Shown piece after piece: positions 27,631 through 33,545 of a stretch of 64,000 nucleotides of DNA. Origin of the DNA: Bacillota bacterium (GTDB lineage: Bacteria > Bacillota > Clostridia > Caldicoprobacterales > Xylanivirgaceae); contig JAMOAB010000175.1 of assembly GCA_023621995.1 (NCBI GenBank), positions 62,001-126,000 of the forward strand, given 5' to 3'. The notes below the pieces were generated by a model that saw nothing but the letters and a program-made list of their open reading frames with translations, ran no database searches and had not been told where the DNA came from. Both the position numbers and the translations under genes were made by a program. Positions within the stretch are counted from its first letter, which is position 1, and each line of letters starts with the position of its first letter.

Positions 27631-28224
27631 TCACTCTTTCTTTTTATTTGTTTTTGTTTGCCTTTTAAAGTTTTTTATGTCAAAAACTGACAATATGTAA
27701 CCGACCGATAATACAATTTGTTGACTGTTTTCCATTGCGAAATTTTTACCAAACGCTTTTCCACCTACAGTCAAAGCAGCAATTAAACTACTTATCAATA
27801 TACTTAAAATAGTCTCATCTAATGTATTTCTCATTATAATTAATCTTGCAACCAATATAGTACCTGCAGAACCACTTAAAATTCCGCATATATCTCCTAT
27901 TACATCATTGCAAAAACTTGACACTCTACTAGCATTTTTTATCAATATAAGTGCCTCATTTGCTCCCCTGATTTTCTTGGATGCCATAGATAAAAATGGA
28001 ATATCGTCAGCAGCAGCTACTGCAACACCAACTATATCAAAAAGAACACCTACCAATATTATAAAAAAAATCGATAACAAAGCAAAAAAAGTATTTTCAA
28101 AGTTGCGAACAAATGCCTCAGAAAACATTCCCAATAAATAGGTCATTATTAAAGTTACAATTGAGATCTTTAAAAGCCAATATTTTTGGGATTTATTAAT
28201 CTTTTTCTGTTTTTTATTCGACAA
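27631..28224 (-). CDS. oapA: OLE-associated protein OapA (multi-pass membrane protein)
   Basis: 197-aa membrane protein immediately 3' of the OLE-type RNA and 5' of dxs; DxxxD motif in 'FCNDVIGDICGILSGSAG'; TTG start with GGAGTG RBS. Confidence 0.88.
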   Translation of the reverse strand: MSNKKQKKINKSQKYWLLKISIVTLIMTYLLGMFSEAFVRNFENTFFALLSIFFIILVGVLFDIVGVAVAAADDIPFLSMASKKIRGANEALILIKNASRVSSFCNDVIGDICGILSGSAGTILVARLIIMRNTLDETILSILISSLIAALTVGGKAFGKNFAMENSQQIVLSVGYILSVFDIKNFKRQTKTNKKKE

Positions 28225-28246
28225 CTATATCACTCCAAAATATTAA

Positions 28247-28837
28247 ATCCGGTGGTAATAGGCTGGATAAACTTTGCGGTTTATGGTCCAGTAGGATTTC
28301 CCAATCTAGTACTCTCTGTCACCAAAAGAGCGGTTTCCCTTTAAACCAGATTTTATCTTGTCGCCAAAGATAAAACTGGATCGCCTTATAACCACACCGT
28401 AATCCCCAGCCTATTCTTATCTGAAAGACAGTCTAGGAGCTTTCCTCTACAGCCAATACCAGCTTCTAGCCTCTTTTGCAGTATAGATTTCATATAGTAC
28501 AGTGATAAAACCTAAAGGGCCCTTTAGGTTTTATCCTTTAAGCTATAATCCGCCAATACCACTCAAGGCAGGCTACACTGCACACAGCTTTATAGCCGCA
28601 ATACAGGTTTAATCCCAAATAGTAGTATATATTCTCATACCACCAGTTTGGGTCTCCACGGAAGCGGGGTCGATCTCTGCATGCCTTTGCAGTCCGCCCT
28701 TCTTCCTTAACTTCCAGCACTAGCCCTCAACTGGGCGTCGAAAGCCAGCACCAGAAACTTCATCGATATGCCCTCAACGGATTTTTAGCCCCGTCTTCAA
28801 AGCTGGCTGTACTGACTAGAATACTGCACCACCAGAT
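28247..28837 (-). ncRNA. ole: OLE (ornate, large, extremophilic) RNA
   Basis: ~590-nt ORF-poor, structure-rich gap between the DUF212 gene and oapA in the ispA-OLE-oapA-dxs context; ends pair as AUCUGGUGGU / ACCACCGGAU; own promoter. Confidence 0.9.
28504..28535 (-). repeat. 32-bp perfect palindrome (hairpin) inside the OLE-type RNA
   Basis: GATAAAACCTAAAGGG|CCCTTTAGGTTTTATC. Confidence 0.9.
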
Positions 28838-28842
28838 CGATT

Positions 28843-28871
28843 ATTATAGCATATAAATTATACTGTTGCAA
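28843..28871 (-). promoter_or_regulatory. Sigma-A-like promoter for the OLE-type RNA
   Basis: TTGCAA - 17 nt - TATAAT on the minus strand, a few nt upstream of the RNA terminal stem. Confidence 0.8.
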
Positions 28872-28887
28872 CTTGAATAAATTGTAT

Positions 28888-29337
28888 TTATCTTAACATT
28901 ATCTTAGATATAATTATACCCAGTACTGCTCCAACAATAACCTCTACAGGAGTATGTCCTATCAGTTCTTTTAATTTTTTTTCAGGTATTTCTTTTTTTG
29001 TCTGTAGTATATCTATAATATCATTTAACACTTCAGCTTGTCTACCCGCTGCCCTTCTAACGCCGGCTGCATCATACATAACCACTAAGGCAAATGCTGT
29101 AGATAATGCAAACATAGTAGAGTCATATCCATGTACTTGTCCAATTGATGTAGCCATGGAAACTACAAATGCTGAATGTGAACTTGGCATTCCACCTGAT
29201 CCAATAAAACGTTTTATATCTAATCGCCTCTTAGCAAGTAATGTAATAATTACCTTTGAAGTCTGTGCAATTAGCCAAGCTAGGGCACTAACCCATATGA
29301 TAGAATTTTGCAATAGCTCATCTATAAAATTTTTCAT
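28888..29337 (-). CDS. Divergent PAP2 family protein (DUF212)
   Basis: 'GGMPSSHSAFVVSMATSIG' and 'VVMYDAAGVRRAAGRQAEVLN'. Confidence 0.95.
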   Translation of the reverse strand: MKNFIDELLQNSIIWVSALAWLIAQTSKVIITLLAKRRLDIKRFIGSGGMPSSHSAFVVSMATSIGQVHGYDSTMFALSTAFALVVMYDAAGVRRAAGRQAEVLNDIIDILQTKKEIPEKKLKELIGHTPVEVIVGAVLGIIISKIMLR

Positions 29338-29348
29338 ATGTCTCTCCC

Positions 29349-30266
29349 TTAATTTTGACGATTTATTATATTGATTGCTAATCTTTCTAGAAAATCAGCT
29401 TTCTCGCCAAAAGGCCTCAATGCTTCAACTGCCTCTGTAATAAGATCGTTCACAATTTTCTTTGATTTATCTATTCCATATAAGAGAGGATAGGTATTTT
29501 TTTTGTTTTTTTGGTCACTGCCTACTTTTTTACCTAAATCTTCAAAGCTACCTGTAATATCTAGTATATCATCTGTTATCTGAAAAGCTAGCCCTATATT
29601 TTCTCCATATTTTCTTGCACAGCTTATAAGTTCCCTATCGACATCTTCTAACATAATACCTGCTAACACCGATGCCTTTATAAGGGCAGCTGTCTTGTAT
29701 CCATGTATAAATTCTAAGGCATCTAATTCTATATATTCGTCTTGGTAGGATATATCTGCAACCTGACCACTTATCATTCCATTTACTCCTGAAGAACTAC
29801 TTATAATATACATAGACCTTAGATGATTACAAATATTATTTGGATATTTGCGAGCATTATCAATCATTATCTCATATGCCATATTCAAAAGTGCGTCTCC
29901 TGCAAGTATAGCCATACCCTCTCCAAATACCATATGGTTAGTAAGTTTACCTCTTCTATAATCATCATCATCCATAGAAGGTAGATCATCATGTATTAGA
30001 GAGTAAGTATGTATCATCTCTATAGCACAAGCAAGGGCAAGGGATTCTTCTATATCTCCTTCCACCATACTATGGAATGATATTAGCAGTATAGGCCTCA
30101 AGCGCTTTCCTCCTGCAAACATACTATATCTCATGGCATCTATAATTTTCCGAGAGTAGTTTAAGTGATCAAAATTATCTATATTGAGATACTTCTCTAT
30201 TTTAGAATTTATTATATTTTGCCTTTTTAAATATTCTTCTTTAAAGTTCATCTGCATTCTCTCCAT
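29349..30266 (-). CDS. ispA: Polyprenyl (farnesyl/geranylgeranyl) diphosphate synthase
   Basis: 'GGKRLRPILL', 'LIHDDLPSMDDDDYRRG', 'QITDDILDI'. Confidence 0.97.
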   Translation of the reverse strand: MERMQMNFKEEYLKRQNIINSKIEKYLNIDNFDHLNYSRKIIDAMRYSMFAGGKRLRPILLISFHSMVEGDIEESLALACAIEMIHTYSLIHDDLPSMDDDDYRRGKLTNHMVFGEGMAILAGDALLNMAYEIMIDNARKYPNNICNHLRSMYIISSSSGVNGMISGQVADISYQDEYIELDALEFIHGYKTAALIKASVLAGIMLEDVDRELISCARKYGENIGLAFQITDDILDITGSFEDLGKKVGSDQKNKKNTYPLLYGIDKSKKIVNDLITEAVEALRPFGEKADFLERLAINIINRQN

Positions 30267-30504
30267 TATTCATGTCAAAAGGTACTTCTTTCAACTGACC
30301 ATTCTTATCTTTCAATAACAACTCTACAGTTCCCTCTGCTTCTTTTAGTTTGGTATTACAATGGTTTACTAATTTTATACCCGTTTGAAAAAGTTCAAGT
30401 GCCTCATCTAGAGGAAGAGTATTAGATTCTAATATATGCACAATCTCCTCTAGTTTAGATATGGCATCTTCAAATGTTGTATCCTTCAAATCATTATTAG
30501 CCAT
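30241..30504 (-). CDS. xseB: Exodeoxyribonuclease VII small subunit
   Basis: 'TFEDAISKLEEIVHILESNTLPLDEALELFQTGIKL'. Confidence 0.97.
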   Translation of the reverse strand: MANNDLKDTTFEDAISKLEEIVHILESNTLPLDEALELFQTGIKLVNHCNTKLKEAEGTVELLLKDKNGQLKEVPFDMNNGENADEL

Positions 30505-30516
30505 ATTCCTACTCCT

Positions 30517-31752
30517 TTATAACTTCTTGTATTTTTTACTTTTTTCTACTGTAACTACATTACAATTGACAACACCATCATGTAGCATTATATCTATATT
30601 ATCTTTTTGGACTATTTGGTCTATGCTACGAATAACCTGTCCACTTTTGTCAGCCACCATGGCATATCCCCTAGATAAAACTTCCAGTGGACTTAAGGCA
30701 TCTAGGTAAGCTGATAGGCTCGCCAGTTGTTTCTTGCTTTTTTCCACAATTTCCTTCATAGAGGAAATCATACGATCACCAAGATTGTCCAATTCAATCC
30801 CATAAGTGTTTATAAGTCTGTCTGGATATTTAAGAGAATAACTATTTTGAAGCATCTTTAACTTTTCTGTTTTAACATCAAATAATCTTCGTATAGAGAC
30901 GTATAGGCGCCTAGTCAATGTTATTAGCATTTGACTATAATATAGCATATCTGGTGCAACTAGTTCAGCAGCAGCTGATGGAGTAGGCGCCCTCAAATCT
31001 GCAACAAAATCTGCAATGGTATTATCTGTCTCATGTCCAATGGCAGAGACGACAGGAATTCTAGATCTCCATATTGCCCTTGCCACCTCTTCCTCATTAA
31101 AAGCCCAAAGTTCTTCTATTGAACCCCCACCTCGTCCTACAATTATGACGTCAATATCTTCCCTAGTGTTGACATAGTCTAGAGCATTTCTTATTTGAGC
31201 TGAAGCATTAACTCCTTGTACTAGTACGGGAACCACCAGTATATCTATTGTCTTATCACGTCTCTTCATAATATTTATAATATCTCTAACTGCAGCTCCA
31301 GTGTGGGAAGTGATAATAGCCACCTTTTTAGGAAATGGTGGTATTGTTTTTTTATATTGGGCGTCAAACAAACCCTCATTAGCTAACTTTTTTTTAAGAG
31401 ACTCGTAGGCGGCATAGAGATCGCCTATTCCATCACGTTCCATATCGTATACATATAATTGGTATTGCCCTTCCTTACAATACAGGGATACCTTACCCCG
31501 TGTAAGCACCTGCATTCCATCAGAAGGTATAAAATTAAGATTTTCACAGTCCTGCCGAAACATTACACAATTTATTCGTGCCTGTTCATCTTTTAAAGTA
31601 AAATACATATGTCCCGAAGAATGAAGTTTGAGATTTGATAGTTCTCCCCTTATCCATATCTCATTTAAAATGGGATCGCGATGCAATAGGCTGCGAACAT
31701 AGTCATTTATTTGTTTTACACTGAACATAAATTTACTCATGGCTCTTTGCAC
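30517..31752 (-). CDS. xseA: Exodeoxyribonuclease VII large subunit
   Basis: 'VKQINDYVRSLLHRDPILNEIWIRGELSNLK', 'GRGGGSIEELWAFNEE'. Confidence 0.97.
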   Translation of the reverse strand: MQRAMSKFMFSVKQINDYVRSLLHRDPILNEIWIRGELSNLKLHSSGHMYFTLKDEQARINCVMFRQDCENLNFIPSDGMQVLTRGKVSLYCKEGQYQLYVYDMERDGIGDLYAAYESLKKKLANEGLFDAQYKKTIPPFPKKVAIITSHTGAAVRDIINIMKRRDKTIDILVVPVLVQGVNASAQIRNALDYVNTREDIDVIIVGRGGGSIEELWAFNEEEVARAIWRSRIPVVSAIGHETDNTIADFVADLRAPTPSAAAELVAPDMLYYSQMLITLTRRLYVSIRRLFDVKTEKLKMLQNSYSLKYPDRLINTYGIELDNLGDRMISSMKEIVEKSKKQLASLSAYLDALSPLEVLSRGYAMVADKSGQVIRSIDQIVQKDNIDIMLHDGVVNCNVVTVEKSKKYKKL

Positions 31753-32581
31753 AATACAAAGTATTCTCTAGAAGCATGGTTATAGTCATAGGTCCAACGC
31801 CCCCTGGCACTGGTGTTATCCAACCCGCCTTATTGATTGCCTCATCGAAATTTACATCACCATATAGCCTATTGCCTACTCTAGAAGTACCTACATCAAT
31901 AACCACTGCCCCTTCTTTTATGTAGGACCCGTCTATAAATTCTGGATTGCCAACAGCTACTATAAGTATGTCTGCCTTATTAGCTATATCCTTTAATTTC
32001 CTAGTTTTTGAATGACACATAGTAACTGTAGCATTTTTATTTAATAACATGAAAGAAACAGGCTTTCCTACTATGTTGCTCCTACCAATAACCACTGCAT
32101 GTTTGCCTTCAATTTGTATATCTGTTTCCTCTATAAGTTTCATAATTCCCTTTGCAGTACATGGTTCCAGTGTCTCTTCTCCGATGACAAGCTTGCCCAC
32201 ATTTATAGGGTGAAAACCGTCTACATCCTTCTTAGGATCTATGGCATTTAAAACTATCTGTGAATCTATGTGATTAGGAAGGGGAAGCTGAACCAATATG
32301 CCATGGACATTATGATCATTATTTAGCTCATGTATCTTATCCAAGAGTTGTTCCTCCGATATACTACTGTCGTATCGTATTATATTAGAGTTCATTCCAA
32401 CGCTTGCACAGCCCCTCTCTTTATTCCTTACATATATTTGGGAAGCAGGATCATCGCCCACAAGAATGACAGTTAAGCCTGGAACGATTCCGCTCTTCTG
32501 CTTCAATTGGAGTGTTCTTTTTTTTATATCCTCTTTTATCCTATCAGCTATTACTTTTCCATCGATTATGTTAGCCGCCAT
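31733..32581 (-). CDS. folD: Bifunctional methylenetetrahydrofolate dehydrogenase/cyclohydrolase
   Basis: 'GILVQLPLPNHID', 'PGGVGPMTITMLLENT'. Confidence 0.98.
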   Translation of the reverse strand: MAANIIDGKVIADRIKEDIKKRTLQLKQKSGIVPGLTVILVGDDPASQIYVRNKERGCASVGMNSNIIRYDSSISEEQLLDKIHELNNDHNVHGILVQLPLPNHIDSQIVLNAIDPKKDVDGFHPINVGKLVIGEETLEPCTAKGIMKLIEETDIQIEGKHAVVIGRSNIVGKPVSFMLLNKNATVTMCHSKTRKLKDIANKADILIVAVGNPEFIDGSYIKEGAVVIDVGTSRVGNRLYGDVNFDEAINKAGWITPVPGGVGPMTITMLLENTLYCAKSHE

Positions 32582-33545
32582 AACAACTCATCCCTTCATA
32601 ATGTTTTATACCTAATAATGCTGCCCCAACTGCATTGTCTTTAGCAAGTTTGGGGTCAGCAAAAAATAATCGTATATTATTATCTTGTTCCTTTTTAAAT
32701 TTTGCACACAATTTTTTCCTTAAAATATGGCTCGAAGTCACTCCTCCTACTAATAATATGTCTGTCAACCCGGTCTTTTCCGTGCCCTTTTTAATCCATT
32801 TATATAGCGTATCTGCCAAACAGTTGTAAACTGAAATTGCAATATCTTCTTTTCTATGCCCACTTTCTATCAGTTTTTTAGTATATGTTTCAGCACCAGA
32901 AAAACCTATTTTATCCCCTCGAACAAATGTTGGAATAGTAATAGCACCATCTTCACCTAAGTTGGCCATCTTTTCTAGTCCTGCACCGGCTGGGAAGTCA
33001 AGTCCCATGGCCACACCTATCCTATCAACAAATTGGCCTGCATGTAAATCCTGTGTGTTGCCTATTATTTCAATTTCATAGGTCTTTTGAAAATCGGATA
33101 TTTTAAGAAGCTCTGATGTGCCACCAGAAAAATGAACTGATAGGAATTCATTAGAATTAGGTCCCTTTGCCGAATACTTTCCTGCCATTATATGAGACTC
33201 CTGGTGACTCACCGAACAAAAGGGTACTCCTAAAAAATCGGAAATTACCTTGCCAATTACATTGCTTACAAGAAATACAGGCATATATGAATTGGCCACA
33301 GGACGGGGTTTAGTAGTACTACACACTATCGCTATCTTTTTCGTATTCACTTTCTTAACTATATCCTCACTTATACTAGGAATATTTTGTAAATGTTTAA
33401 ATATGGCGTTTGACTGTCTGAGTCCAAGTTTACCCCTTTCCACTTCTAAAATAACCTGGCTATTGTATGCAATTTTACCTTCAAAGGATACTAAGGCAAA
33501 TGATGTTGTATAGCAACTCGTATCAATACCTAATGCATATCTCAT
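32571..33545 (-). CDS. Kae1/TsaD-like (O-sialoglycoprotein endopeptidase-family) paralogue
   Basis: 'LGIDTSCYTTSFALV', HxxxH in 'VSHQESHIMAG', 'FVDRIGVAMGLDFPAGAGLEKMA', 'LLVGGVTSS'. Confidence 0.85.
   Translation of the reverse strand: MRYALGIDTSCYTTSFALVSFEGKIAYNSQVILEVERGKLGLRQSNAIFKHLQNIPSISEDIVKKVNTKKIAIVCSTTKPRPVANSYMPVFLVSNVIGKVISDFLGVPFCSVSHQESHIMAGKYSAKGPNSNEFLSVHFSGGTSELLKISDFQKTYEIEIIGNTQDLHAGQFVDRIGVAMGLDFPAGAGLEKMANLGEDGAITIPTFVRGDKIGFSGAETYTKKLIESGHRKEDIAISVYNCLADTLYKWIKKGTEKTGLTDILLVGGVTSSHILRKKLCAKFKKEQDNNIRLFFADPKLAKDNAVGAALLGIKHYEGMSCYGG

What the first reader, a model, noticed from the sequence alone, without database searches (positions are those of the whole stretch)
28247..28837. 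Large structured OLE-type noncoding RNA in the ispA-oapA-dxs gap
Seen directly: about 600 bp without a credible ORF, visibly more GC-rich than its surroundings and full of inverted repeats, lies between the DUF212 gene and a small membrane-protein gene. On the minus strand its ends pair over 10 bp (AUCUGGUGGU with ACCACCGGAU, one G-U), giving an RNA of about 591 nt. Established knowledge: OLE RNA (~600 nt, extremophilic/anaerobic Firmicutes) sits in a conserved cluster with folD, xseA/B, ispA, dxs, tlyA, nadK, argR, recN, spoIVB and spo0A, next to the gene for its membrane partner OapA. This window reproduces that order. ORF-only annotation would miss it.
Basis: partly seen in the sequence, partly recalled or inferred. 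Interest (0 to 1): 0.93.

Follow-up and report, generated by a model that had tools for sequence, protein, structure and literature searches.

The report
OLE noncoding RNA beside oapA

Summary
The finding is correct. Rfam's OLE model (RF01071) matches window 28848-28236, minus strand, over its full length (1-616) at 528.6 bits, E 3.5e-152. The RNA lies between DUF212 and oapA in the cluster folD-xseAB-ispA-DUF212-OLE-oapA-dxs-tlyA-nadK-argR-recN-spoIVB-spo0A. The 10-bp end helix is real: 8 of 10 pairs show compensatory changes among relatives, though Rfam's structure leaves those positions unpaired. The same genome carries OapA, a probable OapB, OapC/YbxF and bS21, and only a fragment of the rival Mg2+ exporter MpfA. 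OLE and oapA are tightly linked: 76 of 76 testable oapA loci carry OLE just upstream. Verdict: a genuine full-length OLE RNA, a new member of a known kind. The one unexpected lead is elsewhere: seven distant genomes keep an OapA-like gene, five of them in the same syntenic slot, with no detectable OLE RNA.

The parts
28236..28848 (-). OLE RNA (RF01071), full-length class; Rfam boundaries
   Evidence: cmscan 528.6 bits, E 3.5e-152, model 1-616 of 616
28828..28837 (-). 5' strand of the terminal helix (AUCUGGUGGU)
   Evidence: 8 of 10 pairs with compensatory changes over 16 relatives
28247..28256 (-). 3' strand of the terminal helix (ACCACCGGAU)
28843..28871 (-). Predicted extended -10 promoter of the ole gene: TTGCAA, 17-nt spacer, TG-n-TATAAT; predicted start near 28836-28837
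   Evidence: 10 of 12 consensus matches with TG (7 promoter-like sites found in the region against 7.3 expected, so the scan alone is not significant); the TATG.TATAAT-type block recurs at the same place in most relatives
27631..28224 (-). oapA, 197-aa membrane protein (OLE-associated protein A), TTG start 12 nt after the OLE model end
   Evidence: CNNM PF01595 E 2.5e-5, below cut-off; invariant D107 and D111 (DVIGD) over 14 OapA; AlphaFold model pLDDT 82.9 whose six best PDB matches are all CNNM/CorB/CorC
28888..29337 (-). DUF212 (divergent PAP2 family) membrane protein, between ispA and OLE
   Evidence: PF02681 E 6.4e-52; same place in 14 of 17 relatives
29349..30266 (-). ispA, polyprenyl synthase
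   Evidence: PF00348
25734..27623 (-). dxs
   Evidence: PF13292 E 2.6e-126
30241..32581 (-). xseB, xseA, folD
   Evidence: PF02609, PF02601, PF02882
19357..25744 (-). tlyA, nadK, argR, recN, spoIVB, spo0A
   Evidence: Pfam for tlyA; NCBIfam for the rest

Best explanation
Window 28848-28236 (-) is a functional, full-length ole gene. It is most likely transcribed both from its own extended -10 promoter, starting at about 28836, and as part of the long folD-to-spo0A operon, then trimmed at its 3' end just before the oapA ribosome-binding site (inferred). The RNA folds into the OLE architecture closed by a 5'-3' terminal helix (shown by covariation), is expected to dimerise through the self-complementary GGCC loop of P9.3 (sequence shown, dimer inferred from published cryo-EM), and binds OapA in the membrane together with OapB, OapC/YbxF and bS21, all of which have candidate genes here. 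By analogy with Halalkalibacterium halodurans the particle adjusts Mg2+ and other stress responses, OapA being a relative of the CNNM Mg2+ transporter domain. The biochemical activity of OLE remains unknown in the field.
For: Full-length Rfam match, 528.6 bits. Terminal helix covariation and fold z -7.4. The promoter-like block recurs at the same place in relatives. oapA lies 12 nt downstream; across 41 genomes every OLE genome (20) has OapA, 20 have neither and one has OapA only; 76 of 80 oapA loci have OLE immediately upstream and the other 4 end within 208 bases upstream of oapA. Synteny ispA-DUF212-OLE-oapA-dxs is conserved in relatives. Candidate partners: OapB (L056:1180-1467, between map and infA; best PDB match 7k9b 'OLE-associated protein B', 9.3e-9); OapC/YbxF (L050:1459-1719, between rpoC and rpsL; best PDB match YbxF 1.3e-15); bS21. 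MpfA's CorC_HlyC domain appears only as a 28-bit fragment in a 42-aa frame, in keeping with the published anticorrelation (PMC11332333). P9.3 loop GGCC here, GAUC in L008, L009 and L014, the switch described in PMC12286853.
Against: No RNA, protein or phenotype data exist here. The promoter hexamers alone are not significant (7 sites found, 7.3 expected). OapA is below the Pfam CNNM cut-off and was assigned by synteny and motif. The OapB candidate is also close to archaeal L14e (2e-7). The MpfA fragment could reflect a gap in a 175-contig assembly. Function is carried over from one model species.
Confidence: 0.96

Rival explanations
1. The structure acts mainly in cis, as a leader that controls oapA and dxs expression, rather than as a free RNA.
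For: It ends 12 nt before the oapA start, and 76 of 76 testable oapA loci have it directly upstream on the same strand.
Against: It has a full-length match to a 616-position trans-acting RNA family, its own promoter-like block and a terminal helix that isolates it from the downstream mRNA. Published work shows a separate abundant ~630-nt RNA bound by proteins (PMC9723947). A secondary cis effect is not excluded.
Confidence: 0.03
2. A decayed OLE remnant that no longer works.
For: The genome is a 175-contig assembly, and decayed ole genes are mentioned in PMC11332333.
Against: 528.6 bits over the full model, inside the 448-553-bit range of complete OLEs in relatives, compensatory pairs kept, intact oapA and partner candidates present.
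Confidence: 0.01
3. A protein-coding or antisense region whose GC and repeats mimic an RNA gene.
For: A 60-aa GTG ORF exists at 28538-28720.
Against: No Pfam match; conservation follows RNA pairing, and the Rfam E-value is 3.5e-152.
Confidence: 0.001

Closest known systems
OLE RNA (Ornate Large Extremophilic, RF01071), full-length class
   Same: Length, full model coverage, structure, L9.3 palindrome, position before oapA, gene cluster, candidate partners OapA, OapB, OapC and bS21 in the genome.
   Different: Only ordinary sequence divergence: a hairpin loop 5 nt shorter and single indels. DUF212 stands between ispA and OLE, an arrangement shared by 14 of 17 relatives.
OLE variants 1 and 2 (TANB77 and RF39 clades, PMC11332333)
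   Same: Same family core.
   Different: Those have shortened or missing P7, P8 and P9 and often lack the OapB site; the window RNA covers the model without such deletions.
MpfA / CorB / CorC (CNNM Mg2+ transporters)
   Same: OapA shares the CNNM-type membrane fold.
   Different: The window protein is 197 aa, with no CBS or CorC_HlyC domain and with the DxxxD motif.

Membership tests
OLE RNA (RF01071) | Match to the family covariance model above gathering score | tested here: met
   528.6 bits against 50, E 3.5e-152, model 1-616
OLE RNA (RF01071) | About 600 nt, highly structured, covarying helices | tested here: met
   613 nt; z -7.4; terminal helix covaries
OLE RNA (RF01071) | oapA as immediate downstream neighbour | tested here: met
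   27631-28224, 12 nt away, DVIGD motif, CNNM-like
OLE RNA (RF01071) | Conserved cluster with ispA, dxs, folD, xseAB, nadK, argR, recN, spoIVB, spo0A | tested here: met
OLE RNA (RF01071) | Self-complementary L9.3 loop (GGCC/GAUC/AGCU) used for dimer bridge B3 | tested here: met
   AAAGGGCCCUUU here; GAUC in L008, L009, L014; dimer itself not tested
OLE RNA (RF01071) | Full-length class with P7-P9 and P12.2/P13 OapB-site region | tested here: met
   Model covered end to end with only a 5-nt loop deletion and single-base indels; two GGNGAC loops kept. The helix names were not mapped one by one.
OLE RNA (RF01071) | Kink-turn for OapC | tested here: inconclusive
   The conserved AUCGAUGAAGUU and GGAAGUUAAGGAAG segments are kept and a YbxF gene is present; the turn was not modelled
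OLE RNA (RF01071) | Abundant discrete transcript, membrane localisation, stress phenotype on deletion | not testable with these tools
   needs RNA and genetics
OapA | CNNM-like membrane protein with DxxxD and without CBS/CorC_HlyC domains | tested here: met
   D107 and D111 invariant; six best PDB fold matches are CNNM proteins, best E 0.028, so weak individually; PF01595 only sub-threshold

The most novel reading that the evidence does not exclude
OapA can outlive its RNA. Seven genomes in one related order keep an OapA-like protein but have no detectable OLE RNA anywhere; in five of them it sits in the canonical ispA-[gap of at most 91 nt]-oapA-dxs slot where the RNA used to be. A further genome (G068) has both an OLE-linked copy and a second, unlinked copy. 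The unlinked copies keep the DxxxD core but lose Met80 with a basic residue at 84 in the patch PFxSMAxKKxxGA (70 of 78 OLE-linked against 0 of 8), which marks that loop as a candidate RNA-contact surface. If so, OapA has an RNA-independent role and the protein side of the OLE-OapA interface becomes testable.
Probability: 0.3. Interest if true: 0.6.

Novelty: new member of a known kind. Interest (0 to 1): 0.27.

Why it matters
OLE is among the largest structured bacterial RNAs whose biochemical function is unknown, so each intact example helps a little; the published census already counts about 2,800 species (PMC11332333) and may include this one. The window adds a clear case with all known partner candidates and almost no MpfA. 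Two by-products could be useful to specialists: the covarying terminal helix and promoter-like block fix the RNA's ends, and the OLE-less oapA lineages go against the view that OLE and OapA may never occur apart, pointing to a protein patch that may contact the RNA.

Tried and rejected
The first DNA alignment held six loci in the wrong orientation (L002, L006, L011, L016-L018); it was used only for the correctly oriented rows, and the ends were recomputed. KOW (PF00467) did not find OapB, only NusG- and L24-sized proteins; it was found through its place beside infA. G019 and G020 looked like broken OLEs but are OLEs cut by contig ends. A 3-mismatch motif search gave no OLE in G033. A sequence-profile search of the PDB with OapA found nothing. 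An intrinsic terminator after OLE was looked for and not found. Asn106 looked specific for OLE-linked OapA but varies in OLE-linked controls from the same order, so it was dropped as a marker. A strict regular expression for the 76-88 patch missed a third of OLE-linked proteins and was replaced by column counts. Two alignment calls failed because matched stretches held stop codons.

Full report
WHAT IS THERE. The Rfam scan of the whole window gives one match at gathering score: OLE, RF01071, 28848-28236 minus strand, 528.6 bits, E 3.5e-152, model 1-616 of 616, not truncated. The block has no ORF with a family match, is more GC-rich than its flanks and folds far better than shuffles (z -7.4). 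Complete OLEs in relatives score 448-553 bits, so this copy looks intact.

ENDS. Rfam's consensus structure leaves these positions unpaired. Over 16 OLE sequences, 8 of the 10 pairs have changes on both sides, the covariation score is 0.510 against 0.162 when shuffled, and no slid register comes near. The helix is therefore real; the published OLE figures, which could not be read here, may already draw it. On the minus strand, TTGCAA-17-TATAAT with an upstream TG ends at 28843. The scan finds as many promoter-like sites as chance expects, but the TATG.TATAAT-type block stands at the same place in most relatives. It predicts a start at 28836-28837, the first base of the helix. An own promoter is also reported for H. 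halodurans (PMC9723947).

NEIGHBOURS. Read on the minus strand the order is folD, xseA, xseB, ispA, DUF212, OLE, oapA, dxs, tlyA, nadK, argR, recN, spoIVB, spo0A. Among 17 relatives with a complete OLE, DUF212 lies between ispA and OLE in 14, and oapA lies directly downstream in 16; in the last, the contig ends 49 bases after OLE.

OAPA. The 197-aa protein matches CNNM only weakly (E 2.5e-5, below cut-off). It carries DVIGD, whose two aspartates are invariant over 14 homologues; the literature calls DxxxD distinctive of OapA (PMC11332333). The AlphaFold model has mean pLDDT 82.9, and its six best PDB matches are all CNNM/CorB/CorC membrane domains, though with poor E-values (best 0.028).

CO-OCCURRENCE. 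In 41 genomes (the window's own and 40 relatives), 20 have OLE and all 20 have OapA; 20 have neither; one (G033) has OapA only. Of 80 oapA loci from named GTDB genomes, 76 have OLE immediately upstream; the other four (L062, L085, L090, L126) have at most 208 bases of DNA upstream. Named genomes whose contigs match relatives include Caldicoprobacter oshimai, C. algeriensis and the assembly UBA3920, so the window is most likely from an uncultured member of the Caldicoprobacter order (inference).

PARTNERS IN THE SAME GENOME. OapB candidate: 95 aa between map and infA, best PDB match 'OLE-associated protein B' at 9.3e-9; OapB's gene lies in a translation operon in H. halodurans (PMC9723947). OapC/YbxF: 86 aa between rpoC and rpsL, best PDB match YbxF at 1.3e-15. 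bS21 is present. MpfA's CorC_HlyC domain is seen only as a 28-bit fragment in a 42-aa frame.

MECHANISM. Shown here: the RNA gene, its pairing, its linkage to oapA and the presence of partner candidates. Taken from the literature: membrane association, OapA/OapB/OapC/bS21 binding and stress phenotypes (PMC9723947, PMC11332333, PMC12265935), and RNA dimerisation including the L9.3 kissing loop (PMC12286853). The window's L9.3 loop holds GGCC and three relatives hold GAUC, the covariation that paper reports. Inferred: that the same particle forms and acts in this organism.

AN UNEXPECTED LEAD. G033 (0.9 Mb) led to its order. Of 61 genomes, seven (G033, G045, G047, G076, G077, G092, G099) have an OapA-like gene without any OLE match, also when searched as a small set up to E 10. 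In G045, G047, G076, G077 and G099 the gene sits in the usual ispA-oapA-dxs order, with gaps of only about 17-91 nt between the ispA and oapA frames, so there is no room for the RNA; cmscan at E up to 1 finds no remnant in the loci. G068 has an OLE-linked oapA (L160) and a second copy (L159) 74% identical to the G033 protein, in an xseA-proS-oapA-infC setting. Against 78 OLE-linked proteins the eight unlinked ones largely keep D63, C105, D107, G110, D111, S117, G118, T152, K156 and K160, but none has Met80 with a basic residue at 84 (70 of 78 linked, 0 of 8 unlinked). These residues lie in a short helix-loop-helix after a membrane helix. Limits: the eight come from about three lineages, G047 and G077 keep part of the patch (AARK), the counts are not corrected for descent, and a variant OLE too diverged for RF01071 cannot be excluded.

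VERDICT. The observation and interpretation are confirmed. As a find it is a standard, intact OLE locus, hence the low interest score; the OLE-less oapA lineages deserve a separate look.

Noticed in passing
L153 (G045), L154 (G047), L155 (G076), L156 (G077), L158 (G099): OapA-like gene in the canonical ispA-oapA-dxs slot with only about 17-91 nt between the frames and no OLE RNA detected anywhere in these genomes.
   Followed up: partly
L159:3516-4115 (+) and L160 (G068); L055:5371-5970 (+) (G033); L157 (G092): A second kind of oapA, in an xseA-proS-oapA-infC setting and not linked to OLE; G068 also has a normal OLE-oapA pair, while G033 and G092 have only the unlinked kind.
   Followed up: partly
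window 27961-27999 (-), OapA residues 76-88: Patch PFLSMASKKIRGA: Met80 plus a basic residue at 84 in 70 of 78 OLE-linked OapA and 0 of 8 unlinked ones; candidate RNA-contact loop.
   Followed up: partly
window 28888-29337 (-): DUF212 (divergent PAP2) gene directly upstream of OLE in 14 of 17 relatives; a search of the held papers for OLE RNA together with DUF212 found none.
   Followed up: partly
window 32571-33545 (-): TsaD/Kae1-like protein between nusB and folD, matching TsaD models only below cut-off; possibly a paralogue.
   Followed up: no
G000:C58:6166-6279: Fragment of a CorC_HlyC (MpfA-type) domain in a 42-aa open frame in the window's own genome; decayed gene or assembly gap.
   Followed up: no
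L055:5988-6114, L157:4144-4265, L159:4137-4259: Divergent L20 leader RNAs below the Rfam gathering score upstream of infC, next to the unlinked oapA.
   Followed up: no
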